This document shows, one piece after another, positions 293 to 28,233 of a stretch of DNA of 64,000 bases. Every line of letters begins with the position of its first letter. Position 1 is the first letter of the stretch. Source of the DNA: Methylosarcina fibrata AML-C10. Lineage in GTDB: Bacteria; Pseudomonadota; Gammaproteobacteria; Methylococcales; Methylomonadaceae. The stretch spans positions 1,137,902 through 1,201,901 of the forward strand of contig NZ_KB889965.1 in the NCBI RefSeq assembly GCF_000372865.1. Reading direction: 5' to 3'. The position numbers and the translations under genes were made by a program. A model generated the notes under the pieces. The model had not been told where the DNA came from and did no database searches. It saw only the letters and a program-made list of their open reading frames with translations.

Positions 293-667
293 TCACTTTC
301 CAGAGAGGATTTTTTGAGCCCGGGCGAAGCAATCCATGTTTCCCTCGCCGTCGCCACCCCGTCGATCAACTACGGATTTCATGATTTTGGCTTCTGCCGT
401 TAAAGAGCGCTGCGAAACTAAAAAAAAGCCGGGCTGCTGCAAACTGTCATTCAACGTCAGATACCGATAACGAAACGTGTCTTCTGCCAGAGCGAGCAGG
501 CCCATGACCCACAATCCGAGTATAAGAGGAAGAGCCCAAATGAATCGTTTGGGCTGCCGGTCAACGCAGGAACTCAATTGCCGGACGTTCCCGATTTCGT
601 TTTTTGGTTCCATTTCCTTATTGTTTATTACCCGTGACAAATGGCTTTTCTTGAATTCGGTTTTCAT
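293..667 (-). CDS. hypothetical protein with one membrane segment
   Basis: A 124-residue protein of unknown family. Residues 1-40 are polar and charged. One hydrophobic stretch (about residues 43-62, WALPLILGLWVMGLLALAED) looks like a single transmembrane helix or an uncleaved signal anchor. The C-terminal half is polar and basic and ends KILSGK. ATG at 667 has a weak AGGC upstream; a second ATG at 613 directly follows AAGGAA and would give a shorter product. It lies on the same strand as the small protein at 754-1029, from which it is separated by about 90 bp. I do not recognise a family and infer no function. Confidence 0.5.
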   Translation of the reverse strand: MKTEFKKSHLSRVINNKEMEPKNEIGNVRQLSSCVDRQPKRFIWALPLILGLWVMGLLALAEDTFRYRYLTLNDSLQQPGFFLVSQRSLTAEAKIMKSVVDRRGGDGEGNMDCFARAQKILSGK

Positions 668-753: not shown

Positions 754-1029
754 TCAAGCATTTGAGTTGCCGCCTCGGGCAGGATTCTGCCCGAGCTTTC
801 CGGTCAAAGCTTTCAATAAATCCTCGTTGTTCCGAAAAGGCTCACAGTGGCCTTCGGTATCTTCAATTATTCCGACCAGCGTGGCCGGCTCGCCGTCTTT
901 TCCGGGAGACCGCCGGTAAATTCGCACGATGTAATACTCGGTTGTCGTTTCACTGCCGCTTGGATCGATCAAGGGTTTACCCTCGTTGTATTGTTGACGA
1001 TGAATCTCGGCCACGAAAGTAAAATACAC
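754..1029 (-). CDS. small hypothetical protein
   Basis: A 91-residue soluble protein. Its core (YYIVRIYRR followed by ATLVGIIEDTEG and a tail with LLKALTGKL) has the shape of the many short bacterial hypothetical proteins that pair a YxVRIYRR strand with a G(I/V)VE strand. No function is known to me. The only upstream start in frame is GTG at 1029, without a clear Shine-Dalgarno sequence. Its 5' end lies 9 bp from the dispersed repeat at 1038-1070, so the natural N-terminus may have been lost to repeat insertion. Confidence 0.5.
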   Translation of the reverse strand: MYFTFVAEIHRQQYNEGKPLIDPSGSETTTEYYIVRIYRRSPGKDGEPATLVGIIEDTEGHCEPFRNNEDLLKALTGKLGQNPARGGNSNA

Positions 1030-1037
1030 GAAGTCGA

Positions 1038-1111
1038 CTTACAGATAGGTTACAGATTGGAAGATTTTTTCCTGATGGCGGCCGAACAGACCGAAGCCAA
1101 GGTAGGGTACG
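1038..1111 (+). repeat. dispersed repeat copy 1 with a partial REP unit
   Basis: Positions 1038-1070 carry two imperfect 11-bp direct repeats (TTACAGATAGG then TTACAGATTGG) followed by AAGATTTTTT. The same block occurs at 20480-20512 and 22951-22985. About 30 bp further on (1102-1111) lies GTAGGGTACG, the start of the REP unit that is complete at 23037-23057. The same order of motifs is seen at the third copy. This is a short dispersed intergenic element of unknown origin. Confidence 0.75.
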
Positions 1112-15894: not shown

Positions 15895-16748
15895 TTATCG
15901 ATTCCCTTGTCCCCAATTTCCCCTGGGCCGGGCTCTTGGTTCTTTCTTTGTTGCCGCTCTGATCACTTGCACGAGCGGCGCACTGGTGACCGAGGCATTA
16001 TTGGCGTCGCCGCTGTACACGGCGGTGATGCTGTGGCTGCCGATTTTCAGGCGCGACGTCGAAAGCCTTGCCACTCCGCCGATCAGCGGGACGGAACCGA
16101 GGCTTTTCGTGCCTTTCAGAAACCGGACCGATCCTGTGGGACTGTTGCCGGTCACCGTTGCGGTAAAGGTCACCCGTTGCCCGCGCAGCGAGGGATTGGC
16201 GCTGGATTCAAGCGCGATGGGGCTGTCGATTAATCGAAAGAAGGTACCTCCTCCGTATTGGCCGCCGCTGGACGTAATACCATAAATGTTGCCGTCATTG
16301 CCCTTAAACAGACCAGCGCCCGGGTTGCCTCCGTTAGCTTGGCCGTCAAAATCGTAGACAATACTAAAATTATCGGAAGTGTCGAGCTTGAATATCGTCC
16401 CTGCGTCATTGCTGCCGCCACCCAAGGTGGTGCCGTAAAAATTGCCGTCGTCGGTCTGGATTAAGCCGTAAGAAGGGTTCGCACCGCCGCTGTCTCCATC
16501 AAAGTTGTGCAGTACGCTAAAATTCCCGGACAGGTCAAGTTTGAATACTTTTCCGAAACCCAGACTGCCTCCATGATATGTAGTACCGTACAGATTACTA
16601 TCGCCGCCTTGGATCAGCCCGGCGGCATAACCATAACTGCCATCATCACCAAACGAGTAGAGGACGCTCATAATCCCGGACGAATCGAGCTTGATTACGG
16701 TCCCGTACCAGACGTAATTTCCTCCGAAAGTATTAATGCCATAGAAGC
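15895..16748 (-). pseudogene. 3' part of the IS-interrupted GloVer-repeat secreted protein
   Basis: This is the C-terminal portion of the gene that begins at 19622. It carries the last four GloVer repeats (SSFYGINTFGG, LYGTTYHGG, FYGTTLGGG, IYGITSSGG, each followed by a GTVFKLD-type strand and a VLHNFDG-type strand). A bacterial Ig-like domain (group 3) follows: VTFTATVTGNSPTGSVRF to HSITAVYSGDANNASVTS. The protein ends GNWGQGNR. An internal ATG at 16671 could start a 258-residue fragment, but it lacks an export signal. Joining this segment to 17957-19622 restores one 840-codon frame. Confidence 0.88.
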
Positions 16749-16758
16749 TACTAGTCAG

Positions 16759-17406
16759 TCACGAAGAAACACAAGGATACAGGCGAGCCAGTTTACGTCG
16801 TGCCTGTTGCGTCGTAAATCGCCAATTGACGGGCGTCGCCTTGGTGTTGCGCGGTAGGATATTGGCTTCGACCTCACGCCGGAGGCTCTCTGTGTCCGGT
16901 ATCCGCTGTGATAAACACATGTTCGACAAGACGGCCAGTTCGATCTCAGCGATGTTTAGCCAACTGCCATGCTTGGGCGTGTAGTGGAACTCCAGCCGTC
17001 GCGCCAATTCACGGGCTTGCTCTGCTGGAAAGGCTTCATACAAAGACGCCATTTTATGGGTATTCAGATTGTCCAGCACCACCCGGATCACCGCCGCGTC
17101 CGGATAAAGTTCAGCGATATGCTTCATGCTGTGCGCGAATTCGATTTTGGTCCGCCGCGCGGTGATGTCCACCTGCCGAAAACCGCGTTTAGGTTCGCAG
17201 ATCATCATCAAATCGCAGACGCCTTTCCGTTCATAGCCGGTGTCATAGCGGGCCGGTTGACCGGGCTCAGGCGGGAGAGGTTGGCGGACTTCCGCAATGA
17301 GTTGCTTCGGACTTTCGTCGAAACACACAACCGGGCGCAACGGATCGTAGGGTTCTTCATAAAGGTCCAGCACGTCTTCCATCGCCGCGACAAATTCAGC
17401 ACTCAC
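16759..17406 (-). CDS. IS630-family transposase, catalytic C-terminal frame
   Basis: A 215-residue frame carrying the DDE catalytic core: VVCFDESPKQLI (first D), IRVVLDNLNTHKMASLYEAF (second D), and HGSWLNIAEIELAVLSNM (E). Its natural upstream sequence is in the frame reading KPWQKQEWCIPEVSAEFVAA, which joins it to the N-terminal frame near 17450. The ATG-like start at 17406 is probably not a real initiation site. The stop codon lies inside the left inverted repeat. Confidence 0.88.
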   Translation of the reverse strand: MSAEFVAAMEDVLDLYEEPYDPLRPVVCFDESPKQLIAEVRQPLPPEPGQPARYDTGYERKGVCDLMMICEPKRGFRQVDITARRTKIEFAHSMKHIAELYPDAAVIRVVLDNLNTHKMASLYEAFPAEQARELARRLEFHYTPKHGSWLNIAEIELAVLSNMCLSQRIPDTESLRREVEANILPRNTKATPVNWRFTTQQARRKLARLYPCVSS

Positions 17407-17872
17407 CTCGGGAATGCACCACTCTTGCTTCTGCCAGGGTTTGAGAGTGTTTTTTTAAAAGCTGACGGATGGTTTCATAGCTGCAACGGTCGGCATACGC
17501 TAATTCCACCACTTTGTCCGCCAACAACCGCAAGGTCCAGTGATCATGCCCTGTCGGCGCCTCACTACAAGCCAAGGCGATAATATGGGCGGCCTGCTTC
17601 TCCGTCAGTTTTGGGGCACGTCCTGGACGGGGGCGTTCTTTCAGGGCGGCTTCCGGGCCTTCTTCCACACACCGTTGGCGCGTCGTCAACACCATTGATT
17701 CCGAGACACCCAAAGCTTGGATAATGTCTTTATCCTGAATACCCGCTGCCGCTTTTAATAAAATTCGCGCGCGTGTCAGATGGCGTGCCGCGGCTTTTCC
17801 TTTGTTGATCATGGCTTCCAAGCCACGCTTTTCGTCTTCAGTCAGATTGACTTTGTATTTAAGAGCTGGCAT
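17396..17872 (-). CDS. IS630-family transposase, N-terminal DNA-binding frame
   Basis: A 158-residue frame with the helix-turn-helix DNA-binding half of IS630 transposases: ARHLTRARILLKAAAG, then DKDIIQALGVSESMVLTTRQ, and a second winged part ending CSYETIRQLLKK. After LLKK the sequence leaves the family consensus and stops at 17396. The consensus continues in the +1 frame across an A7 tract (plus-strand T7 at 17450-17456), so full-length transposase would need slippage or frameshifting there, or the gene is mutated by one base. Confidence 0.88.
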   Translation of the reverse strand: MPALKYKVNLTEDEKRGLEAMINKGKAAARHLTRARILLKAAAGIQDKDIIQALGVSESMVLTTRQRCVEEGPEAALKERPRPGRAPKLTEKQAAHIIALACSEAPTGHDHWTLRLLADKVVELAYADRCSYETIRQLLKKHSQTLAEARVVHSRGEC

Positions 17873-17942
17873 TGCTTGACCTCAATCAGTAACCATCAAT
17901 GCCACTATAGAGTGACTTACAAGCCCAATATATCCTTTTGAT

Positions 17943-19622
17943 TTAAATTGACTGACTACTACCATCACTTCCCTGAAACATTCCTGATTTGATATATCCT
18001 CCCAAATTCGGCCAAAACTCTTGTAGAACGTTAAAATTCCCGGACGGATCGATTTTGAAAAATGTTCCGCCACCGTTACCGCCACCACCCGCAGTAGTCC
18101 CGTAAAAAAGGCCATCATGTCCCTGAATTAGATTGGTGGGACCTGAGCCGTCTGTAGAATCGAACGAATGCAGAATGCTGAAACTCCCCGACGGATCCAG
18201 TTTAAAAATCGTTCCGAAGCCGTTACTGCCGCCTCGTTCTGTAGTTCCGTAAAAACTAGCGTCCGTCCCCTGGATTAAATTAGACGGATTGGCGGAGGAC
18301 AAATCTTCGGTTGCCTCAAATTCGTACAAGATATCGGTATTTCCGGCCGCGTCCAGTTTGAACAGCGTTCCGAAACCGATGCCTCCATCCCAAGTAGTTC
18401 CATAAAAATTGCCGTCACTGCCCTGGATCAGCTTGACCCCACTTCCCATGGCTTTATCGAAGGTATGCAGAAGGGTAAAATTTCCCGACCCATCGAGCTT
18501 GAACACCGTTCCTGTACTGTTGCTGCCTCCGTCATTCGTAGTCCCGTAGAAGCTGCCGTCATTCGCCTGAATTACGCCATAAGGCCATGCGCCGCGCTCA
18601 TAGTCGAACTCATGCAGTACGCTGAAGTTCCCTGCCGAGTCAAGCTCAAAGACCGTTCCGAAACCACTAATGCCACCTGTCATAGTGGTGCCGTAAAAAT
18701 GACCGTCCGGTCCTTGAGTTAGACTGGAAGGTGCTGAGTTGATCCCATAATCAAAAGAATGGAGGATGCTAAAATCCCCGGAGGCATCGAGCTTGTAAAT
18801 CGTGCCGCCGTATCCGCCGTTGGTCGCACCATAGAAACTGCCGTCGCTGCCCTGGATTAACCCTGTATTAGGGTTGGCGACTCCGGTGGCCCCATCGAAT
18901 TCGTAGCGGATGCTAAAGTCTCCTGACGGATCAAGCTTGAAGATCGTCCCATCGTCTTGAATACCTCCGGAACCGGTGGTGCCATAGAAACTGCCGTCAC
19001 TTGCCTGAACCAATTCTGCATAAGGAAATGCGCCATCAGTTCCGTTGAACTCGTGTAGTACGCTGAAGTTCCCTGCCGAGTCAAGCCCAAAGACTGTTCC
19101 GAAACCGCTTATGCCACCGGTCATAGTGGTGCCATAGAAATAGCCGTCGCTGCCCTGAATCAGCGATGCATAGGGATTGGCGCCGCCGCCGTCTCCGTCG
19201 AACTCATGTATAACGATGAAATTTTTGGACGAGTTGATCTTAAACACGATTCCGGCATTGCTGCCGCCACCGGCATAAGTCGTGCCGTAGAAATAACCAT
19301 CCCTAGCCAGTAGTAAGCCTGCATAGGGATTAGCCCCGCCGCCGGCTCCGTCGAATTCGTGCAGGACGCTAAAATTGCCGGATGAATCAATTTTGAAGAC
19401 CGTTCCGGCACCATTGCTTCCTCCGTAATACGTAGTGCCATAATAATTACCTTCCGGATCCTCAATCAGCTTTCCGTAAGGGGTGCCTTCCCGTTTCCCC
19501 ATGGACTGGATTAATTGAAATTCAACCGATGCCGCCGCAGTGTGTGATACAGACCAACCCAACAAGGTCAGCCAGGCCAGCAGCACAACAATAGAATTGC
19601 GGATAAAAAAATAAGTTTTCAT
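17943..19622 (-). CDS. GloVer-repeat secreted protein, N-terminal part (interrupted by IS)
   Basis: A 559-residue frame beginning with a signal peptide (SIVVLLAWLTLLGWSVSHTA) and then ten tandem GloVer repeats of about 45-55 residues. Each contains GSDG(S/N)FYGTT, a GG(S/I) turn, GTVFKLD, SGNFSVLHEFDG. The repeats probably form a beta-propeller or solenoid on the cell surface. Repeats 3 and 6 are nearly identical (FYGTTMTGGISGFGTVF in both), which suggests internal duplication. The last native codons are at about 17957; the remaining residues (QSI) come from the insertion sequence. ATG at 19622 precedes a clear signal peptide. Function unknown. Confidence 0.85.
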   Translation of the reverse strand: MKTYFFIRNSIVVLLAWLTLLGWSVSHTAAASVEFQLIQSMGKREGTPYGKLIEDPEGNYYGTTYYGGSNGAGTVFKIDSSGNFSVLHEFDGAGGGANPYAGLLLARDGYFYGTTYAGGGSNAGIVFKINSSKNFIVIHEFDGDGGGANPYASLIQGSDGYFYGTTMTGGISGFGTVFGLDSAGNFSVLHEFNGTDGAFPYAELVQASDGSFYGTTGSGGIQDDGTIFKLDPSGDFSIRYEFDGATGVANPNTGLIQGSDGSFYGATNGGYGGTIYKLDASGDFSILHSFDYGINSAPSSLTQGPDGHFYGTTMTGGISGFGTVFELDSAGNFSVLHEFDYERGAWPYGVIQANDGSFYGTTNDGGSNSTGTVFKLDGSGNFTLLHTFDKAMGSGVKLIQGSDGNFYGTTWDGGIGFGTLFKLDAAGNTDILYEFEATEDLSSANPSNLIQGTDASFYGTTERGGSNGFGTIFKLDPSGSFSILHSFDSTDGSGPTNLIQGHDGLFYGTTAGGGGNGGGTFFKIDPSGNFNVLQEFWPNLGGYIKSGMFQGSDGSSQSI

Positions 19623-19771: not shown

Positions 19772-20017
19772 TCAACGGCCGACGCGAATCAATATTCTGC
19801 CGACGCTTTTACTGCCTCCAAAATAAGTCATGCCGTACAAATTGCCGGAGGCATCCTGAAGCAGCTTGCCGTAGGGCGATCCATCCAGCTTGCCCACCGA
19901 CTGGATTAACTGAAATTCGGTGGCCGCCACGGCGCCGACCAGCAATAGCATGCCGAGCAGAACCAGCATGCTCAGCAGCCAGGTGACCATCACATGAATG
20001 AATTCAAATGATCTCAT
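19772..20017 (-). pseudogene. truncated paralogue of the GloVer-repeat protein
   Basis: An 81-residue frame. A signal peptide (LLSMLVLLGMLLLVGAVAA) is followed by EFQLIQSVGKLDGSPYGKLL and GNLYGMTYFGGSKSVG, which parallels EFQLIQSMGKREGTPYGKLI and GNYYGTTYYGGSNGAG of the neighbouring GloVer protein. After the first repeat the sequence drifts to RILIRVGR and stops. It is most likely the 5' remnant of a duplicated gene. ATG at 20017 has GGGGGAG upstream, so a short exported peptide could still be made. Confidence 0.7.
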
Positions 20018-20163
20018 GCTCTCCCCCATGATTGATTATTTTTGGGTTCTTTTATCAGAATGTCCGTTCCTTAATCATTTAGTCGAAGGCATGCCTTCGA
20101 ACCGGAAAGCCAAACCCGGCAAGTCCTCTCCCCGCATCGGACTTTTGTATGGTCCCTTCGCCT

Positions 20164-20307: not shown

Positions 20308-20479
20308 GCGGCCTCCTCGACTAGGAACGAGGTTTGCCGACAACTCGCCGGTCAATACCTCAATGTAATAAATGTAATATTTGCTGGTTGTTCCATAGCC
20401 ATTCGAATGGCTTGATGGATCATCCTGTCACATGGTTGACAATGAATTTCAACCACGGCAGCAGACTACCTGTCATAAC

Positions 20480-20512
20480 CTTACAGATAGGTTACAGATT
20501 GGGATATTTTTA
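20480..20512 (+). repeat. dispersed repeat copy 2
   Basis: It carries TTACAGATAGG and TTACAGATTGG in tandem followed by GATATTTTTA, preceded by ATAACC as in copy 3. It lies between the small membrane protein gene and the first secreted paralogue. No GTAGGGTACG half-REP is visible just downstream, unlike copies 1 and 3. Confidence 0.75.
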
Positions 20513-20728: not shown

Positions 20729-21358
20729 TCATTTTATAATCTCCACAGTATGGCCTTTGCTCTGACTTATAGTGTTGTCTGAGGGAATTTTAGAGAAAAA
20801 TGATCCCGTGATAAAAGACTCGCTCAAAGACGCAGGCGCATTTTTTTCATCCCATGAAACATTTTGTTTGAATGAACCATAGTCATAGTGATCCTTTCCG
20901 GAAGAAGAATAAGCCTGATCGATTAATGCTTCCGCATTAATATTAAATGTAACAGTATCGGAAAAGTCAGTGGTAGGAGACATTTCCCCCCAATAGAATC
21001 CCGTTATCGGGATCGATCCTGAAGCGGTAACCTTTTCTGGGAAGCTGCCCGCTTTCGATGCGTTAAATTCAATGGCTGTTGTCTCACCCCAAAAGTAATA
21101 AAAATAGCCTCCGTCAGAAATGTAACCGTTTATATAAGCGCCGCTTGAGCCGCCCTTAACCGACTTGCTCTTGGAAGCGTTTTCAAAAACTGATAAATGT
21201 AGCCAATAAGGAACCTCGTTTATTACTCCCGAAGATGAAGCATAGACAGCCGCGCCTTGGCCGGAAAAGACAGAGGTCTCCGCCACTGTGATGAAAGGAG
21301 AAAAAACAGCGATGGTCAGGCCCAAAGCGGCGAAAATGAATTTCATGGTTGTTTTCAT
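20729..21358 (-). CDS. unknown secreted protein, tandem paralogue A
   Basis: A 209-residue protein with a signal peptide (FIFAALGLTIAVFSPFITVA). The middle block FENASKSKSVKGGSSGAYI, then YFYYFWGETTAIEFNASKAG, and FPEKVTASGSIP is shared almost residue for residue with the next gene, while the flanks differ. Both end in a short K/S-rich motif (SKGHTVEIIK here). It is rich in Ser, Gly and aromatics, suggesting a beta-structured extracellular or outer-membrane-associated protein. ATG at 21358 has AGGGG eight bases upstream; the GTG nine bases earlier is less likely. Function unknown. Confidence 0.65.
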   Translation of the reverse strand: MKTTMKFIFAALGLTIAVFSPFITVAETSVFSGQGAAVYASSSGVINEVPYWLHLSVFENASKSKSVKGGSSGAYINGYISDGGYFYYFWGETTAIEFNASKAGSFPEKVTASGSIPITGFYWGEMSPTTDFSDTVTFNINAEALIDQAYSSSGKDHYDYGSFKQNVSWDEKNAPASLSESFITGSFFSKIPSDNTISQSKGHTVEIIK

Positions 21359-21436
21359 AATGGTCACCCCTAAATCTTGTTTTTCAACTGATTACCAAAA
21401 CATATCGATATCCACAATCAAAGCTCTAAGCCAACA

Positions 21437-22078
21437 TTATTTGGTAATTTCCACACTATGAGATTTGCTCTTACCTACCTCACCAAAGGTATAACTGGCG
21501 GTGTCAGTATTGAGGGTGTCGAATCGGCTGGTGACGGATAAATCGTTAAAAACGGCAGGAGCGAAAGTTTGATTGTAATGAGCATTTTGCTTGAGTGTCC
21601 CATAGTCGGACTTGCGCGTTCCTGACCAATTAACCACCTGATCCGTCACTGCTTCCGCATCTACGCTAAACTGTACTGTATCCTCATAGGAATCGTAATC
21701 GCAAATAACATCATAACAGAAGGGATACCATGTTCCCGGAATTGATCCAGAAGCGGTAACCTTTTCTGGGAAGCCGCCTGTTTTTGTTGCGTTAAATTCA
21801 ATAGTCGTTGTCTCCCCCCAAAAGTAATAAAAATAATCTTCATCAAAAATGTAACCCTCTATATAAGCGCCGCTTGAGCTGCCTTTGGCCGATTTGCTCT
21901 TAGAAGCATTTTCGAAAGCTCTAATTCTTATACTGTAATTGACACCGTCGGATACAGAAGCAGCTACATACGCTTCTTTACCTGAAAAAACGGAATTAGC
22001 TGCCCCTGCGATTAACGGCATAGAGATAGAGGCGATCATGCTGCAAGTGGCGCAAATAGATTTCATGGTTGTGTTCAT
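21437..22078 (-). CDS. unknown secreted protein, tandem paralogue B
   Basis: A 213-residue paralogue of the gene at 20729-21358, 78 bp upstream of it. The signal peptide (SMIASISMPLIAGAA) differs in sequence, but the block FENASKSKSAKGSSSGAYI, YFYYFWGETTTIEFNATKTG, FPEKVTASGSIP is conserved, as is the terminal SKSHSVEITK. It carries two Cys in FCYDVICDYD that copy A lacks. ATG at 22078 follows GAGGAG by eight bases. Both genes and the next one upstream read in the same direction and may be co-transcribed. Confidence 0.65.
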   Translation of the reverse strand: MNTTMKSICATCSMIASISMPLIAGAANSVFSGKEAYVAASVSDGVNYSIRIRAFENASKSKSAKGSSSGAYIEGYIFDEDYFYYFWGETTTIEFNATKTGGFPEKVTASGSIPGTWYPFCYDVICDYDSYEDTVQFSVDAEAVTDQVVNWSGTRKSDYGTLKQNAHYNQTFAPAVFNDLSVTSRFDTLNTDTASYTFGEVGKSKSHSVEITK

Positions 22079-22120
22079 GATTATCACTCCTCAACTTTAT
22101 TTTCAACGGATAATAAGCAA

Positions 22121-22804
22121 TTACGGCCGGCTACCAATTGTTAAGTGATAAGTAATATCCTGAGTCTCTCCCGCCCGGAAATGCAGCACGTGCTCGCCGG
22201 GATTGAGAGGCGGCAGCATTACCCAGAAGCCGTCGGAAACGATCGGGTAGCCGGTCAGGCCGTTCGGATCCAGGCCGAAGACGTTATCAACCGGGAAATT
22301 GGCCGTGAACACCGGCGATTGACTTCTTACGATCGGTGTGTCGGGATTGAAAATAATCGGTTGTCCATCCAAAGTCGCTTCGAGATCGCCTCCAATTGAC
22401 GGCGGGAGAGTATCGTTTGCAAACTGTCGGTACTCGGTTTCGGTGTGCGGATCGTCCCAGGCAGAATTGATCCAGAAGGAGTTGACGATCGGAAACAAAA
22501 TGTACTTCCCTTTGGGAACAATGCAGTTACGGTCGGCGGTGCCGCCGGTAAAAACGCCCGCCAGGAACCAGGCCGGACCTGTTTGATTCACATCACAAAA
22601 AGCCCCGGTAGTATCCAGCATGGGGTTAACCGAGGCCGGAATGGCAAGAGCCCACTGCCACCATTTGGCCGACCATTCTCCTACCGTCTTACCCAGAACG
22701 GTGGGCGTCGAGTACGCAAACGCTATCGAAGGTGCCATTAGGGCGCCGACAAGCAATCCTGCAAAGAGTTTGTGTGTGTTGGTGAAAAGATGTTTTTTGA
22801 ACAT
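22121..22804 (-). CDS. conserved secreted protein of unknown function
   Basis: A 227-residue exported protein: MFKKHLFTNTHKLFAGLLVG begins a signal peptide ending at about APSIAFA. The mature part opens with VLGKTVGEWSAKWWQWALAI, then GPAWFLAGVF, CIVPKGKYILFPIVNSFW, and ends in LPPLNPGEHVLHFRAG and TYHLTIGS. The two Cys (FCDVN, NCIVP) could form a disulfide. I do not know a function for this sequence type. ATG at 22804 is preceded by AGGGGG. It is the most upstream of three co-directional secreted-protein genes. Confidence 0.7.
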   Translation of the reverse strand: MFKKHLFTNTHKLFAGLLVGALMAPSIAFAYSTPTVLGKTVGEWSAKWWQWALAIPASVNPMLDTTGAFCDVNQTGPAWFLAGVFTGGTADRNCIVPKGKYILFPIVNSFWINSAWDDPHTETEYRQFANDTLPPSIGGDLEATLDGQPIIFNPDTPIVRSQSPVFTANFPVDNVFGLDPNGLTGYPIVSDGFWVMLPPLNPGEHVLHFRAGETQDITYHLTIGSRP

Positions 22805-22950
22805 GGTAGCCCCCTGTTTAGTCAATAGTTATCAACGCCTGACACCAAGTCTGGTCTGCCTGGCGCCGGTCGATTCTCTACGGCTTTTTCGCCAACCCTA
22901 CGGGTCGAGGTTGATTGCTTTCAGCCGCAGAGGTAGGCTACCGGGTATAA

Positions 22951-22985
22951 CCTTACAGATAGGTTACAGATTGGAAGATTTTTTT
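22951..22985 (+). repeat. dispersed repeat copy 3
   Basis: TTACAGATAGG and TTACAGATTGG in tandem followed by AAGATTTTTTT, identical to copy 1 over more than 30 bp. A GTAGGGTACG-headed REP unit follows about 50 bp downstream (23037), as in copy 1. Confidence 0.75.
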
Positions 22986-23036: not shown

Positions 23037-23109
23037 GTAGGGTACGCACCGCGTACCAGGAATTCGATCCCTCTGCCCGTTTTGAGAAGGTACGCGGTGC
23101 GTACCCTAC
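23037..23109. repeat. BIME-like pair of inverted GTAG-headed REP units
   Basis: Two perfect 21-bp inverted units (23037-23057 and 23089-23109) flank a 31-bp spacer. Each unit is GTAG followed by its own hairpin GGTACGC-ACC-GCGTACC. GTAG plus a hairpin is the signature of REP elements handled by RAYT (TnpA-REP) transposases, and an inverted pair is a BIME. The right unit supplies the TAG stop of the BTAD regulator. No RAYT gene is in this window. Confidence 0.85.
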
Positions 23110-24104
23110 TCGCTGTCGATCAGTTTTTGATAAAGATTTTGCGTTTCGGCGGTCGGGCTGATGCCCAGGTGGGTCAGCAGCACCCGGCGGCAGCGCTGAT
23201 AGACGGCCAGCGCTTCGGCGCGCCGGCCCAGTTGAGCCTGGCAGATCATCAGCCGGCGGTAAAAGCTTTCCGCCGCCGGTTCGATTTCGACGACCCGATG
23301 GTAGCAATCGAGGGCGGCCGGCCAGTCTTCTTCCTGTTCCAGCAGCGAGCCGAGGCGCTCCGACAGTTTCAGAAAATGGCTGCGCAGGCGTTCCCGAAAG
23401 GCCAAGGCCCAGGCGGCGGTTTCGCCTTCCAGAAAATGCCCGCGGTAGCGGTTCAGGGCGGCTTGCAGCGTCTTCCTGTCGCCCTGTTCCGGAGCGTGGG
23501 CGATGCGGTCGAACGCCAAGGCGTCGACCCAGACCCAATGAGGATCGAGCGACAAGCGGCGGTCTTCCAGCCGAACCGAGTGGTCGTGTTTTAACAGCGT
23601 ACGGAGGCGGTGCAGCGTGGTGTTCAGCGCCTGGTCGGCGGCATCGCCCAGCGCGTCCGGCCAGAGCAGGTCGGTCACCCGGCTCTGATGCACCGAGGAG
23701 CCGCCGAAAGCGCAGAGCAGCTTGATCAGCTCCAGCGGTTTGTTTTGCGCTTTCCGGGTCGAGCGGAGCGGCTGGCCGTCGCACTGGATTTCGAAGCGCC
23801 CCAGCGTATAAATGCGCACCGGCCACGGCCAGCGGTCCGACGCCGTGGCCGGATCGGGGGGCGGAAACCGGTAGCGGCGAATCATGAACTGCACCAGCTC
23901 TACCTCGATGCCGGCTTCGAGCGCGCGATGGTATAAGGGAGCCAAATAGGCCGGTCCGCCTAAATCGTAGAAAGGTCCGCCCATGGCGCGGCTCAACGCC
24001 AGGGCCTCGGCAAGACGGGCCAATCCGAGCGGTTCCTGCCCCGTTTGAAAAGCCTCGCTCGCTTCCGTTACCAGACAGAAATTTTCGAGCAGGCTGCTGT
24101 TCAT
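23106..24104 (-). CDS. BTAD-domain C-terminal part of the split MalT-like regulator
   Basis: A 332-residue frame, the C-terminal third of the regulator that starts at 26297 and is in the same frame. It contains an OmpR/SARP-type winged helix (about VRIYTLGRFEIQCDGQPLRS, then KPLELIKLLCAFGGSSVHQS and VTDLLWPDALGDAADQALNT) and a bacterial transcriptional activation domain of TPR type (VDALAFDRIAH to LAVYQRCRRVLLTHLGISPT). ATG at 24104 is simply the first one after the amber codon at 24183; the coding sequence continues upstream (ARALFRLGQPEAAWKHLNQA), so the native start is not here. The stop TAG is part of a REP unit. Confidence 0.8.
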   Translation of the reverse strand: MNSSLLENFCLVTEASEAFQTGQEPLGLARLAEALALSRAMGGPFYDLGGPAYLAPLYHRALEAGIEVELVQFMIRRYRFPPPDPATASDRWPWPVRIYTLGRFEIQCDGQPLRSTRKAQNKPLELIKLLCAFGGSSVHQSRVTDLLWPDALGDAADQALNTTLHRLRTLLKHDHSVRLEDRRLSLDPHWVWVDALAFDRIAHAPEQGDRKTLQAALNRYRGHFLEGETAAWALAFRERLRSHFLKLSERLGSLLEQEEDWPAALDCYHRVVEIEPAAESFYRRLMICQAQLGRRAEALAVYQRCRRVLLTHLGISPTAETQNLYQKLIDSE

Positions 24105-24182
24105 GGCCCGGGCAATTGTTCTGGCCTGGTTCAGATGTTTCCACGCCGCCTCCGGCTGGCCCAGACGAAACAGTGCCCGCGC

Positions 24183-26297
24183 CTAAACGATGCGGCACCA
24201 GGCTTCGGGAAACGGCGTGCCGGATTTTTCCGTCATGGCAACGGCGGTGCGCCCTTGTTCGGCCGCCTCGGGCCAGTTGCCCCGCTGTCCGGCGATATTC
24301 GAACGCAGAAGATACAAGAATGAGCTATAGACATTGCTATGCTTCGGCCAACTGCCCCGGCTGGCATCCAAGACCGCTTCGGCTTGGGCGACGTCGCCAC
24401 TGACCAGAAAAAATTGCACCAGGGAGGAATAAAACTGAAAATCCCATAAATGCAGACCGGTACGCTCCGCCATGGCCGTCGCCTTACCGACACACCCCCG
24501 TAAAGCTTCCGGATCGCCAAGACTTAGATGAAAAAATCCTTGCCCAAAAATCTGCCAAACGATGTAACAAAGAGGTGAAAGCGCAGGCGAATCCGAATAA
24601 GCATTCAGCCGATCGCTGATCAAGCGGATTTTATGAAAATCGCCTTGCCAGCCTGCATGGACGATAAGATAAGTACCCAACCCCATCGACTGGTCGAGAC
24701 GATTAACCGGATCGAGCAAATCGGGAGCCCCTTCCTTCCAGTCCTGTACTAAGGAATCCTGAGGTCTGCGCATACAGACGGTACCAAAGGCGCCGGCGGT
24801 GCGCCGTTCGATGTCGGGGGAAGGATAGTCCGGAAACCGCCGCCGCAGCCGTTTGAACTCCTCGATCCAGGGATCTACTGGATAGAAGTCGTCGAATTCG
24901 TTGAAATAGCTTTCCATGAGGCCGGACCAGGAGGAATACAGCCCGGCCGCATCGTCCTGCTTGTCAAACGTGAAATAAGCCCGTTCGAACAGTTTTCGCG
25001 CCTCGACCGGGTTGAGCGGCGACCTCGCCATGCCTTGCCAGAACCGCAGCCAGGGATTCTCGTCAAACGCAGCCGGAAGGGTACCGATCCACTGATCCAG
25101 CGTCCGGTTCCGCCCCGCCGCGAGCAGCGAAGGGGCTTCCCGGAGGATCAGTCCGGCCAGGGCTTCCCAGGCTTCCGCTTCACCGTAGAGCATCGCGGCC
25201 CGGTCGGCCTGTCCCGCTTCGGCCAGCACGTCCCCTGCCCGCTGCTTCAACCGCCGCCATGCGTCCGGTTCGAACAGATCCCGTGCCCGGTCGAGTAAAA
25301 AGGCGCGGAATAGTCCGTGAAATTCATAGACCGGCTCGCCCTCCCCGCGCTGAACCACGAAACAGTTGCGCCGGTGCAGATCGGCCAGCACCGCCGCAAC
25401 TTCCGATTCATCGGTCAATTGCTGTAGCTGAGGCAGCGCCATCACCGGCAACAAGGCGGCGCACGCCAAGCCGCTCCGCACTGCCAAAGAAAAATGCCCG
25501 AACAGCTCGTTGCTGAAGTAGTCGAACAGCAACTGCCGATTTTCGCTCTCTGCCTGCGCATCAGGGAAGTGTTCTTGCTGCTGGGCAAGCAAAAACATGA
25601 AGCCGGCGATCCAGCCCTGGGATTGCTTCAGCGCCTCAGCCACTCGTTCGTCCTCGAACGGGACGGCATGGTGCGATTGCCTTGCCTTCGCGAAGGCCCA
25701 GGCTTCTTCGGCGGTCAGATTGAGCTCGTCGCCGCGCAGGACCGCCAGATCGCCGTGCAAGCGGAGCCTCGCAAAGACCGGCGGCGGCTGCGTCCGGCTC
25801 AAAATCATCAGTCCGACGTCGGCAGGAAGCGACATGGCCAGGTCCCGGACCACCTCGTGCAGCAACCCCTCGGCGGGAACCTGCTCGTAATTGTCCAGGA
25901 CGATCAGGGCCGGCCTTTTCAGCCGTTCGGCGATGGCTTCGGCGTACAGGCGGACGAAGGCGGTCAATCCCGGCAGATACTCCGGAGTCAACAGCGGCAG
26001 GGTTTGACGGCTGCGGGGCGCTATTTGTTCGAGGGCCTGCCGCCAATGGAGAAAGAAACCGGCAAGATCGGCATCGCCGGCGTCGAGCTGATACCAGAGA
26101 TGATCGAGCGCATTCTCCGCCAGATAATGGCTGGCCAGCGTCGTCTTGCCGGAGCCTGGAGGTCCGACCAGCCAAAGGATGCGGCTATGCCGAAGCCGGT
26201 CAAGCCGTTGAAACAGGCGCGGACGCAAAACCGGATGGTTGGCCCCAGGCGAAACGAATTTGGTCGAGAGAAAAGTTCTGTTCGAAGTATGCTTCAT
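24183..26297 (-). CDS. MalT-like AAA/TPR part of a BTAD-type regulator, split by an in-frame TAG
   Basis: A 704-residue frame starting with FLSTKFVSPGANHPVLRPRL and a Walker A WLVGPPGSGKTTLA (about residues 40-54), then the STAND/LuxR-family core LIVLDNYEQV and VGLMILSRTQPPPVFARLRL, and TPR-like helices. It halts at TAG (24183-24185) after EAWCRIV. The frame continues without further stops to 23106, giving a 1064-codon gene with a C-terminal BTAD domain. Proteins of this design are large ligand-responsive activators. The gene lies 37 bp downstream of a TonB-dependent receptor gene. As it stands, the DNA-binding domain would be lost unless TAG is read through. Confidence 0.82.
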   Translation of the reverse strand: MKHTSNRTFLSTKFVSPGANHPVLRPRLFQRLDRLRHSRILWLVGPPGSGKTTLASHYLAENALDHLWYQLDAGDADLAGFFLHWRQALEQIAPRSRQTLPLLTPEYLPGLTAFVRLYAEAIAERLKRPALIVLDNYEQVPAEGLLHEVVRDLAMSLPADVGLMILSRTQPPPVFARLRLHGDLAVLRGDELNLTAEEAWAFAKARQSHHAVPFEDERVAEALKQSQGWIAGFMFLLAQQQEHFPDAQAESENRQLLFDYFSNELFGHFSLAVRSGLACAALLPVMALPQLQQLTDESEVAAVLADLHRRNCFVVQRGEGEPVYEFHGLFRAFLLDRARDLFEPDAWRRLKQRAGDVLAEAGQADRAAMLYGEAEAWEALAGLILREAPSLLAAGRNRTLDQWIGTLPAAFDENPWLRFWQGMARSPLNPVEARKLFERAYFTFDKQDDAAGLYSSWSGLMESYFNEFDDFYPVDPWIEEFKRLRRRFPDYPSPDIERRTAGAFGTVCMRRPQDSLVQDWKEGAPDLLDPVNRLDQSMGLGTYLIVHAGWQGDFHKIRLISDRLNAYSDSPALSPLCYIVWQIFGQGFFHLSLGDPEALRGCVGKATAMAERTGLHLWDFQFYSSLVQFFLVSGDVAQAEAVLDASRGSWPKHSNVYSSFLYLLRSNIAGQRGNWPEAAEQGRTAVAMTEKSGTPFPEAWCRIV

Positions 26298-26334: not shown

Positions 26335-28233
26335 TTAAAAATCCAGTTGAAAACCGCCGTAAACCGCAATACCGGGCATGTCGGTGCTGTAGATCTGCGC
26401 GATGCGGGTGTTCGTAAGATTCTCCCCGCGCAGATAGATCTCGGCTCGGCGCGTGACCGCATAACGGATCGAGGCGTTAATCTGAACCGAATCAGCCACT
26501 GGAAGCGTGTTGCCGGTATCGTTCCAGGTCGAACTGCGCACGACGGCCTCGGTCCACAAAGTCACCGGAAGTTGCGCCAGTTTCTGCTTTCCCCAAATCC
26601 GCGTGGTGTGGGGCGGCCGGAACGGCAGGCGTTTGTCGGTGGTTAAATCGCGGCTGTCGCTGTACGTGTAGCTGAGCCCCGTCTCCAGACGATCGGTCCA
26701 GGCGTATTGCGCATTCCATTCCATGCCTGCGACGTCGGCGTCGGCCACATTGATGGAGATGGGACCCCGGTATGGTTCATAAGCCAGTGTAATGAGGTCG
26801 TCGAAACGCTGGTAGAAACCGTTAACGGCAACCTGCATGCCGGTTACCGGACGCCATTCGATACCCAGGCTGCCGCTGGCCGAACGTTCGGGCGTCAAAT
26901 GGGGGTTGCTGAAGAACAAAAACAGCAGTTCTGTGTAACTGGGCAGGCGGTAGCCGGTTCCGCCCGAAGCGCGCAACGTCAAACCGGGCTTCATGCGCCA
27001 TGCCGCTGCGGCTTTGAATAAAGGGCGGTCGCCGTAGCGATCGAAATGCTCCATGCGCATGCCGACTTCTCCGCTGAGATTGCCGTACTGGCCTTGAGTA
27101 TCGATAAAACCTGCGGCCAGCGTCCTTTCTTGATTAAAGCTTGCGGGTATCATCTGATTGAAGCCTAAAGATGACGAGGTTCCCTGTTCCTGCCGGGCCT
27201 CCCCTCCCCAGACGACATGCCATCGAATTTTCTTCCGGGTCTCTTCGACGAGGGTGTGTTGATTACGCCAGTTGGCTAAAAAAAGCCGGGTCAACATGGT
27301 GTTCTGCAAAGGGCCTGTATTCACATCCGTCGCCAATTGAGTAAAGCCCAGTTGCAAGCGGCTATTCCAATCGGACGATACCCGATAATTCAGGCTGCTC
27401 TGGGTCAGCCAGGTTTCTTCCTTGGCATGACTATGGCTGTCGTCCTGTAAAGCGATCCGGCCCTGATCGTCGATGCCGAATTTGTCGGTACCGATGCCGG
27501 AGTTCCGGTACAACATCGACCCCTGCCAGTTCAGACGCGCCGTGAGATCGGACGAAAAGCGCAGGATGCCCTGGGTAAAATGCGAAGGCTCGCGCTCCGG
27601 ATTGCCGGCGGCATTGGCCAGATGGGCGCCGTCGAAGGCATCGCCCCGACTCAGCGTTGCGGTCAGCCGGCCTGCGTTTCCGGCAAGGCCGCCTTGCAGA
27701 GTTTCCCGAAGAATGCCGAAGCTGCCGCCTTCCACGGAAAGCCTGCCGCCAGTTTCCAGGCGTTCTTGAGTGTAAAGGCGAAGCGCTCCACCCAGGGACT
27801 GGAACGGATAATAGGCGGCTCCGGGTCCCCGTTCGATTTCCGCCCGCCCGATGGCCTCGACGGGCAAGGTATCCAGATTGAAAAATCCGGGAATCGACAG
27901 CAGCAATGGAACATCGTCCAGAGTGATTAGCCCCTGCCCTCCGGCGCCGCGTATGTATAACGATCCGACTTGTCCGAAACCTCCGATTTTGTTCGAAGTC
28001 AATCCGGAAAAGCCTTGCAGAACGTCGGTCATACTGCGTTCATGAGCGACGGCAAGTTCTTCTTCCTCCAGGATTTCGGGATCATTGACGAGCTGTTCCA
28101 GCGGTGCCGGAGCTGGAGTTACCGTCAAGGCAGGCAGATATTCCAGAGCGCTAGCCGTTCGAATGGGAACGTAAAAAATAATGCCGATCAGGAAAAATAG
28201 CCATGAATTTCTTGAAAACCAAGGCGTCCTCAT
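26335..28233 (-). CDS. TonB-dependent outer-membrane receptor
   Basis: A 632-residue receptor. The signal peptide (FFLIGIIFYVPIRTASA) is followed by a TonB-box-like LPALTVTPAP, a plug domain (about residues 60-165: MTDVLQGFSGLTSNKIGG, VGSLYIRGAGGQGLITLDDV, VEAIGRAEIERGPGAAYYPF), and a 22-strand-type barrel ending in GGFQLDF, with the terminal aromatic residue needed for barrel insertion. The overall size is like BtuB and other vitamin or small-siderophore receptors, but the substrate cannot be told from sequence. It is probably co-transcribed with the MalT/BTAD-type gene 37 bp downstream, which may sense the imported compound (inference). Confidence 0.9.
   Translation of the reverse strand: MRTPWFSRNSWLFFLIGIIFYVPIRTASALEYLPALTVTPAPAPLEQLVNDPEILEEEELAVAHERSMTDVLQGFSGLTSNKIGGFGQVGSLYIRGAGGQGLITLDDVPLLLSIPGFFNLDTLPVEAIGRAEIERGPGAAYYPFQSLGGALRLYTQERLETGGRLSVEGGSFGILRETLQGGLAGNAGRLTATLSRGDAFDGAHLANAAGNPEREPSHFTQGILRFSSDLTARLNWQGSMLYRNSGIGTDKFGIDDQGRIALQDDSHSHAKEETWLTQSSLNYRVSSDWNSRLQLGFTQLATDVNTGPLQNTMLTRLFLANWRNQHTLVEETRKKIRWHVVWGGEARQEQGTSSSLGFNQMIPASFNQERTLAAGFIDTQGQYGNLSGEVGMRMEHFDRYGDRPLFKAAAAWRMKPGLTLRASGGTGYRLPSYTELLFLFFSNPHLTPERSASGSLGIEWRPVTGMQVAVNGFYQRFDDLITLAYEPYRGPISINVADADVAGMEWNAQYAWTDRLETGLSYTYSDSRDLTTDKRLPFRPPHTTRIWGKQKLAQLPVTLWTEAVVRSSTWNDTGNTLPVADSVQINASIRYAVTRRAEIYLRGENLTNTRIAQIYSTDMPGIAVYGGFQLDF

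What the first reader, a model, noticed from the sequence alone, without database searches (positions are those of the whole stretch)
24105..24190. Single in-frame amber codon inside a 1064-codon MalT/BTAD regulator
The frame from 26297 to 23106 is continuous except for TAG at 24183-24185. Reading across it gives EAWCRIV-stop-ARALFRLGQPEAAWKHLNQA, with TPR-like sequence on both sides and no frameshift. A single CAG-to-TAG change (Gln) is the simplest cause. The split removes the DNA-binding BTAD half, so either the regulator is newly inactivated or the codon is read through. Neighbouring genes have normal termination, so recoding would be specific to this site.
Basis: seen in the sequence. Interest (0 to 1): 0.7.

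Follow-up and report, generated by a model that had tools for sequence, protein, structure and literature searches.

The report
Stop-broken activator with conserved binding sites
A methane-eater relative carries a gene-switch protein cut in two by a stop codon, most likely just a recently broken spare copy, but following it up revealed a DNA control element that appears to belong to this little-studied family of switches in many bacterial phyla.

Summary
In detail: one in-frame TAG (24183-24185, minus strand) splits a 1063-codon STAND/TPR/winged-helix/BTAD activator into 704 and 358 codons. Recoding is not supported. No CTA-anticodon tRNA was found (43 of 43 tRNA matches typed), no PylS reached its cut-off, the gene's own end is also TAG, and an intact paralogue (70% identical) sits elsewhere in the genome. 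The paralogue has leucine at the site, as do 14 of 22 homologue rows; none has glutamine, so the proposed CAG origin is unlikely. Best reading: a recently nonsense-inactivated copy, tolerated because the paralogue probably serves the same promoters.

The unexpected result is those promoters. A direct repeat, ATCTGTA-N4-ATCTGTA, followed 13 bp later by TAnnnT, occurs exactly four times in the genome: three in this window, one just after the paralogue. Across 311 genomes of the order the repeat occurs 10 times, 6 directly downstream of a homologue; a scrambled control gave 4 sites, none near one. In a species-wide scan, 36 of 116 loci with repeat plus TAnnnT encode a homologue. The C-terminal half folds like AfsR's SARP domain. 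This is probably the operator of a reversed-order, SARP-type activator family. Binding is inferred, not shown.

The parts
24183..26297 (-). N-terminal ORF, 704 codons plus TAG: MalT-like STAND NTPase and TPR sensor part
   Evidence: NCBIfam MalT model 145.1 bits, below its 537-bit cut-off; weak AAA hits
24183..24185 (-). In-frame amber codon TAG
   Evidence: aligned with Leu in the paralogue
23106..24182 (-). C-terminal half, 358 codons plus natural TAG end (23106-23108): last TPR helices, winged helix, BTAD
23526..23825 (-). Winged-helix DNA-binding domain (about residues 120-219 of the C half)
   Evidence: model, mean pLDDT 93.4; aligned to AfsR and EmbR
23121..23483 (-). BTAD domain
   Evidence: Pfam PF03704, 87.4 bits against cut-off 22.1
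23106..24104 (-). Longest ATG-started ORF within the C half (332 aa), a possible free SARP-like fragment if translated; no recognisable Shine-Dalgarno
   Evidence: no sigma70-like promoter in 24000-24600, where shuffles give 0.2 on average
22954..22971 (-). Candidate operator site 3 (ATCTGTAacctATCTGTA), 135 bp after the regulator's end
22935..22940 (-). -10-like hexamer TAGCCT of site 3
20482..20499 (-). Candidate operator site 2
20463..20468 (-). -10-like hexamer TAGTCT of site 2
1040..1057 (-). Candidate operator site 1
1021..1026 (-). -10-like hexamer TATTTT of site 1
22121..22825 (-). Predicted target of site 3: protein of unknown family with a hydrophobic N terminus (likely start ATG at 22804)
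   Evidence: ORF; no Pfam or NCBIfam hit
19772..20029 (-). 85-aa remnant of a GloVer-repeat protein, first recognisable coding piece after site 2
17943..19622 (-). GloVer-repeat protein, cut at its 3' end by an insertion
   Evidence: TIGR03803 563.3 bits
16759..17872 (-). Transposase ORFs (DDE_3 and HTH_32/HTH_29; IS630-like by my reading) inside the GloVer gene
15895..16671 (-). Remaining 3' part of the GloVer-repeat gene
   Evidence: TIGR03803 147 bits
293..667 (-). 124-aa remnant after site 1; homologous to about the first 100 residues of the 378-aa gene after the paralogue's site
26335..28233 (-). TonB-dependent receptor gene, 37 bp upstream of the regulator on the same strand
   Evidence: Pfam, NCBIfam
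23037..23108 (-). Dispersed palindromic repeat (REP-like) overlapping the regulator's end; 70 of 72 bases identical after the paralogue

Best explanation
The regulator is a recently inactivated copy of a STAND/TPR activator whose effector is a C-terminal SARP-like domain (winged helix plus BTAD). A substitution created TAG in the last part of the TPR sensor. Translation then yields a 704-aa NTPase/TPR protein without a DNA-binding domain. The intact form would, on its signal, dimerise on the 11-bp direct repeat ATCTGTA-N4-ATCTGTA that lies over the -35 position and recruit RNA polymerase to promoters with a TAnnnT -10 box, driving neighbouring, mostly exported-protein genes. The loss is tolerated because a paralogue with a near-identical DNA-contact stretch and the same site 131 bp downstream persists, and because two of the three predicted target units in this window are themselves broken. 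Shown: the stop, the paralogue, the lack of a detected suppressor tRNA, the sites and their linkage, the predicted fold. Inferred: DNA binding, activation, redundancy, and that the 704-aa piece is inactive.
For: One TAG in an otherwise homologous full-length frame. Intact paralogue, 70% identity, with almost the same recognition-helix stretch (NTTLHRLR against STTLHRLR). Leu, not Gln, is the common residue. 43 of 43 tRNA matches typed, none with CTA anticodon; PylS only below cut-off. No Shine-Dalgarno before the internal ATG. C half folds like AfsR (Z 18.0, 234 aligned) and EmbR (Z 16.8, 232 aligned). Four exact repeats in the whole genome, reversed control 0. Order-wide: 10 sites in 311 genomes, 6 right after a homologue; reversed control 3; scrambled control 4 sites, 0 near one. 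36 of 116 loci of the species-wide scan encode a homologue. Interrupted or partial copies recur in the order.
Against: The part after the stop shows no decay: no second stop, no frameshift, dN/dS 0.27 against 0.32 before the stop, and no excess of window-specific changes (14 against 19). That fits a young stop or continued use of the C half; the 3' end may also have been refreshed by exchange with the paralogue. Site 3's target ORF looks intact. Reads are not available, so an assembly error is possible. No binding or expression data exist; 80 of the 116 loci with the extended pattern encode no homologue in the DNA held, and 18 of 26 homologue loci examined lack the site nearby.
Confidence: 0.78

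Rival explanations
1. Sequencing or assembly error: the real codon is sense and the regulator is intact.
For: The downstream half shows no decay; one base is enough; no reads are held.
Against: The assembly has 2 contigs, 99.99% completeness and 0.49% contamination, and the defect is a substitution rather than a homopolymer indel. Nearby genes are damaged by larger events.
Confidence: 0.08
2. Split into two working proteins: the 704-aa sensor and a free, deregulated SARP-like fragment started at ATG 24104, making the promoters constitutively on.
For: For AfsR, full-length and TPR-less proteins activated less than the isolated SARP domain, so loss of the sensor can raise activity (passages of PMC10936776). 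The C half is conserved and modelled with high confidence.
Against: No Shine-Dalgarno before that ATG; no promoter-like site in 24000-24600, though shuffles also give only 0.2; 78 nt between the stop and the ATG. No naturally split homologue among those examined.
Confidence: 0.07
3. The truncated N half has been kept as a regulator without DNA binding, for example titrating a ligand or the intact paralogue.
For: A close homologue in another genus (G003, 53-54% identical) has also lost its DNA-binding half and keeps a 555-aa open N half. Neither N half shows an excess of unique changes at p below 0.05.
Against: Independent decay explains both; other copies in the order are interrupted at unrelated places.
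Confidence: 0.04
4. Programmed or suppressor-mediated read-through of this TAG.
For: Conserved sequence after the stop.
Against: No CTA-anticodon tRNA among 43 tRNA matches, PylS below cut-off, natural TAG end in the same gene, TAG ends 6 of 51 long ORFs in a crude set from the window. None of the 22 homologue rows with a letter here has a stop.
Confidence: 0.03
5. The direct repeat is a PhoB-type box bound by an unrelated two-component regulator, not by this regulator.
For: OmpR-type proteins bind similar 11-bp direct repeats (pho-box geometry recalled, not from a call). A review states that AfsR and PhoP share a site in Streptomyces (passages).
Against: Restriction of the exact repeat to the neighbourhoods of the two paralogues in this genome and linkage to homologues of this regulator across phyla.
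Confidence: 0.08

Closest known systems
AfsR (large SARP regulator of Streptomyces)
   Same: Winged helix plus BTAD with the same fold (Z 18.0, 26% identity), a STAND NTPase and a TPR sensor; operator of two 11-bp direct repeats overlapping the -35 region (passages of PMC10936776).
   Different: Domain order reversed: here the SARP-like domain is C-terminal. Repeat sequence differs (ATCTGTA). The second heptamer ends 13 bp before the -10 box, against the 8 bp stated for SARP promoters.
MalT / LAL regulators
   Same: N-terminal STAND NTPase and TPR sensor; the MalT model matches residues 12-418 (145.1 bits).
   Different: Below the MalT cut-off (537 bits); the C terminus is winged helix plus BTAD, not a LuxR-type HTH.
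SARP-LAL regulators such as PimR
   Same: A SARP domain joined to a large ATP-binding regulator; heptameric direct repeats with 4-nt spacers (passages of PMC10972967).
   Different: PimR's main site has three repeats and does not overlap the -35 box; its SARP domain comes first (recalled); other phyla and targets.
EmbR (Mycobacterium tuberculosis)
   Same: Winged helix plus BTAD fold (Z 16.8).
   Different: Carries a C-terminal FHA domain (stated in PMC10936776) and no STAND/TPR part (recalled).
Nonsense pseudogenes of regulators in bacteria
   Same: Single in-frame stop in an otherwise intact frame, with an intact paralogue present.
   Different: Nothing exceptional.

Membership tests
SARP family (AfsR type) | OmpR-type winged helix followed by BTAD | tested here: met
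   Pfam BTAD 87.4 bits; model aligned to AfsR over residues 120-358
SARP family (AfsR type) | SARP domain at the N terminus, extra domains after it | tested here: not met
   The SARP-like domain is C-terminal; hence 'works like a SARP', not filed as a classical one
SARP family (AfsR type) | Direct repeats with 11-bp period in the -35 region | tested here: met
   As sequence only: 7+4+7 repeat 13 bp before TAnnnT
SARP family (AfsR type) | 3' repeat 8 bp from the -10 element | tested here: not met
   13 bp from the end of the second heptamer; 8 bp is the published statement
SARP family (AfsR type) | Binding to the repeat and transcription activation | not testable with these tools
   Needs gel shift and in vitro transcription
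MalT (equivalog) | Score over the NCBIfam cut-off and C-terminal LuxR-type HTH | tested here: not met
   145.1 of 537 bits; winged helix and BTAD instead
Nonsense pseudogene | Premature in-frame stop in a frame homologous over its full length to intact relatives | tested here: met
Nonsense pseudogene | Relaxed constraint after the stop | tested here: not met
   dN/dS 0.27 after against 0.32 before; 14 window-specific against 19 paralogue-specific changes. Expected if the stop is young
Nonsense pseudogene | Stop present in raw reads | not testable with these tools
   No reads held
Amber suppression or pyrrolysine decoding | tRNA with CTA anticodon, or pylS | tested here: not met
   43 of 43 tRNA matches typed, none CTA; PylS best 36.3 bits against cut-off 178.15. 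A highly diverged tRNA missed by the Rfam model is not excluded

The most novel reading that the evidence does not exclude
ATCTGTA-N4-ATCTGTA-N13-TAnnnT is the operator-promoter of a widespread, unstudied family of reversed-order SARP activators (STAND NTPase, TPR, winged helix, BTAD) that switch on the mostly exported-protein gene next door in many bacterial phyla (this part alone I hold at about 0.8). In this genome the amber stop is, in addition, a natural domain separation that freed the SARP-like domain from its inhibitory sensor, so that the promoters are constitutively on.
Probability: 0.06. Interest if true: 0.75.

Novelty: new variant of a known kind. Interest (0 to 1): 0.45.

Why it matters
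The stop codon itself is ordinary. The control element is not: it pairs a regulator family known mainly by its BTAD domain with a specific DNA site, in Methylococcaceae, Nitrosomonas, Geobacteraceae, Nitrospirae, Desulfobulbaceae and others. If binding is confirmed, regulons can be read from sequence, and an AfsR-like activation mechanism, described structurally in Streptomyces, becomes testable in Gram-negative environmental bacteria.

Tried and rejected
Gln origin of the codon: rejected from the homologue column. Suppressor tRNA: all 43 matches typed, none; a loose anticodon-loop pattern search (YTCTARA) gave 651 hits and was useless. Pyrrolysine. Natural two-gene arrangement: G115 contig 89 looked like one but is a frameshift. 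Naming the organism through its 64-kb second contig failed: the only record was a 77.5% match over 36% of 20 kb to a Methylomonas plasmid. Close relatives in genome contigs: none. Recognition-helix differences between homologues with and without the nearby site: none obvious to me, the helix is conserved in both groups; so I cannot say why 18 of the 26 homologue loci lack the site nearby. An 11-of-14 match also arises away from regulator ends (G001, G310, and a second one near the paralogue), so the G105 site is weak on its own. With up to 2 mismatches the own genome has 12 sites against 4 in the reversed control, so only the exact four stand out. Half-site identity, done on the first 80 of the 116 loci only: unit position 8 equal in 23 of 25 linked against 28 of 55 unlinked, position 9 in 18 of 25 against 27 of 55; supportive, but the unlinked set probably mixes real and chance sites. 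The look at target genes (the 25 linked loci among the first 80) was a crude hydrophobicity scan with a threshold set by eye and no control; L168 is an exception (an export-apparatus-like protein by my reading). The absence of promoter-like sites at 24000-24600 and at site 3 is weak, as shuffles also give only 0.2 and 0.3. Literature: ten searches; no listed title pointed to this operator. I saw listings and abstract starts, and passages of PMC10972967 and PMC10936776 only. The search for the bare heptamer found 2,862 papers, of which 15 were listed, so it excludes nothing.

Full report
Observation. The minus-strand frame from 26297 to 23106 contains one TAG at 24183-24185 and no frameshift. 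It gives 704 codons before and 358 after the stop. A 358-codon stop-free run has a probability near 2e-5 under the gene's own base composition. The gene lies in an unnamed 4.98-Mb, two-contig genome. One genome that the tool places in the same order (G037) has a 3,299-base contig that matches, in length and site position, a contig titled Methylococcaceae (L257), so the order is probably Methylococcales. My attempt to name the species failed.

Homologues. The same genome holds an intact 1069-aa paralogue at C1:4105524-4108730 (70% identity over 3-1068). By codon alignment, protein identity is 65% before and 81% after the stop. At the stop the paralogue has leucine. Of 25 distinct homologue rows, after dropping three duplicate loci, 22 have a residue in this column: 14 Leu, 3 Tyr, 3 Ala, 2 His; 3 are gapped; none has Gln or Glu. 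The rows are a selection of the loci fetched, and distant rows may be misaligned here.

Recoding. 43 tRNA matches were found in the genome; all were typed with ARAGORN and none has the anticodon CTA. The PylS model gives only sub-threshold hits, as it does in 12 of 14 control genomes. The gene's natural end is TAG. In a crude set of 51 long ORFs of the window, 23 end in TAA, 22 in TGA and 6 in TAG. Read-through is not excluded but nothing points to it.

Age and constraint. dN/dS between the copies is 0.32 before the stop and 0.27 after it. Polarised by five outgroup rows, window-specific and paralogue-specific changes after the stop are 14 and 19 (9 and 14 before the high-identity tract), with no excess on the window side. 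Before the stop, residues 0-543, they are 58 and 39 (p 0.067), but 41 and 39 when G003 is the outgroup. Under uniform mutation, the lack of a second stop in 358 codons bounds neutral divergence since the event at about 0.08 per site. So the stop is young, or the C half is still used. The last part of the gene (codons 1001-1040: 97% nucleotide identity) and the palindrome after it (70 of 72 bases) are more alike than the rest, which suggests exchange between the copies; the palindrome alone is a dispersed repeat (27 matches with up to one mismatch).

Are broken copies common? In 311 genomes of the order, 50 have a match. Besides the window copy, matches with internal stops are in G277 (two TAA), G310 (TGA, near the end), G226 (TGA) and G077 (TAA); G115 has a frameshifted copy; G003 has lost its 3' half. 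Some of these genomes are incomplete assemblies, so errors may contribute. No natural two-gene form was seen among the copies examined; some partial matches were not examined.

What was lost. The C half was modelled with 33 aligned sequences (mean pLDDT 93.4). Residues 120-358 match AfsR (8k60_I, Z 18.0, rmsd 4.5, 234 aligned, 26% identity) and EmbR (2fez, Z 16.8, 232 aligned). The next rows are TPR proteins at Z 12.9 or less, most of them aligned mainly over the BTAD part. In a sequence-profile search AfsR (3.2e-21) and EmbR (2.5e-14) are found too, though designed and natural TPR proteins score as well or better through the TPR-like stretch alone. The N half matches the MalT model over residues 12-418 at 145 bits, under its cut-off. 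So the protein is a STAND NTPase with TPR sensor and a C-terminal SARP-like effector, and the stop removes the whole effector.

The operator. Comparing the sequence after both copies showed a shared direct repeat, ATCTGTA-N4-ATCTGTA. In the whole genome it occurs exactly four times: window 1040-1057, 20482-20499, 22954-22971, and 131 bp after the paralogue; the reversed control has none. Site 1 and the paralogue's site share flanking sequence, as do sites 2 and 3, so these are not four independent events. In 311 genomes of the order there are 10 exact sites in 7 genomes; the reversed control has 3 (G133, G149, G174). Six of the 10 lie 35-135 bp after the end of a homologue on the same strand (window site 3, paralogue, G083, G039, G214, G037). 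Of the other four, two are window sites 1 and 2, one is in a genome whose homologue lies on another contig (G088), and one (G256) is in a genome without a detected homologue. A scrambled heptamer gave 4 sites in 4 of 311 genomes, none near a homologue listed; one of the four genomes (G226) has a homologue on another contig. G003, which lost the DNA-binding half, keeps a 13-of-14 site 45 bp after its stop. Against this, 18 of the 26 homologue loci show no such site nearby.

A -10 box. In 9 of the 10 exact sites TAnnnT follows 13 bp after the second heptamer; the exception is G256. G003 and G105 also have it. This feature was not used to find those sites. No sigma70-like promoter is found at site 3, as expected for an activator-dependent promoter, but shuffled sequence gives few as well.

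Beyond the order. The pattern with the -10 box was scanned in the species collection. 36 of 116 encode a homologue by tblastn: 25 of the 80 listed and 11 of the other 36. One of them, L257, is the G037 contig again. They include Nitrosomonas, Geobacteraceae, Nitrospirae, Desulfobulbaceae, Magnetominusculus, Anammoxibacter, Chromatiaceae, Pseudoduganella and Poribacteria. In 28 of these 36 the site is 3' of the regulator on the same strand, 23 of them within 250 bp; three are upstream on the same strand; five are on the opposite strand. By a rough hand estimate from the density of homologues, fewer than one locus in 116 would be expected by chance. The 80 unlinked loci include many AT-rich Firmicutes and Bacteroidetes, where chance matches are likely.

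Targets. For 22 of the 25 linked loci a next gene was found; 16 have a hydrophobic N-terminal stretch at a threshold set by eye, without a control. Ten genes after linked sites were scanned with Pfam: 7 had some match and 3 none. Matches include di-haem cytochrome c peroxidase (G039), PKD/beta-helix, PQQ-propeller and PEP-CTERM. In this window the site-1 gene is a remnant of the paralogue's intact target (47% over 96 aa). After site 2 lie a GloVer remnant and a GloVer gene interrupted by transposase ORFs. The site-3 gene looks intact. The regulator's stop thus sits in a partly decayed local regulon.

Interpretation. Passages of the AfsR structure paper say that SARP operators are direct repeats with 11-bp or 22-bp period, the 3' repeat 8 bp from the -10 element; that the SARP dimer contacts the box and sigma region 4; and that full-length and TPR-less AfsR activate less than the isolated SARP domain (PMC10936776). 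A review's passages add that heptameric repeats overlap the -35 region (PMC10972967). The element here has the same 11-bp period, with a 13-bp distance. I infer that this family binds it. Binding, activation and redundancy of the two copies are inference.

Verdict. The stop is most likely a recent nonsense mutation in a redundant copy. The recoding idea is not supported. The by-product, a conserved operator for a reversed-order SARP-type activator family, is the part worth following; in my ten literature searches no listed title pointed to it, within an open-access library and capped lists only.

Noticed in passing
window 15895-19622: A GloVer-repeat gene interrupted by a transposase-bearing insertion (two ORFs, DDE_3 and HTH_32), splitting it into 559-aa and 258-aa parts.
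   Followed up: partly
window 293-667 and L076:9003-10139: A 124-aa remnant of a family whose 378-aa member follows the paralogue; weak HAF-repeat similarity.
   Followed up: partly
window 23037-23108: A dispersed palindromic repeat (GGTACGCGGTGCGTACC arms) sits at the ends of both regulator genes and overlaps the natural stop; 27 matches with up to one mismatch in the genome.
   Followed up: partly
window about 23106-23475 (3' end of the regulator) and the same part of its paralogue: Unusually high identity at the 3' ends of the two copies, up to 97% nucleotide identity, suggesting gene conversion.
   Followed up: partly
window 20729-21367 and 21437-22087: Two adjacent, similar-looking proteins with signal-like N termini and no Pfam match, downstream of the site-3 target.
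   Followed up: no
G003 contig 23 (L078): The closest single homologue in another genus has also lost its DNA-binding half but keeps the operator-like site 45 bp after its stop.
   Followed up: partly
L144, L185, L187 (one Nitrospirae bin) and L153, L183, L223 (Magnetominusculus LBB02): Several copies of the extended site in single genomes, possibly wider regulons.
   Followed up: no
L196: A third, slightly diverged heptamer (ATCTGTGacct) directly precedes the two exact ones, as in three-repeat SARP boxes.
   Followed up: no
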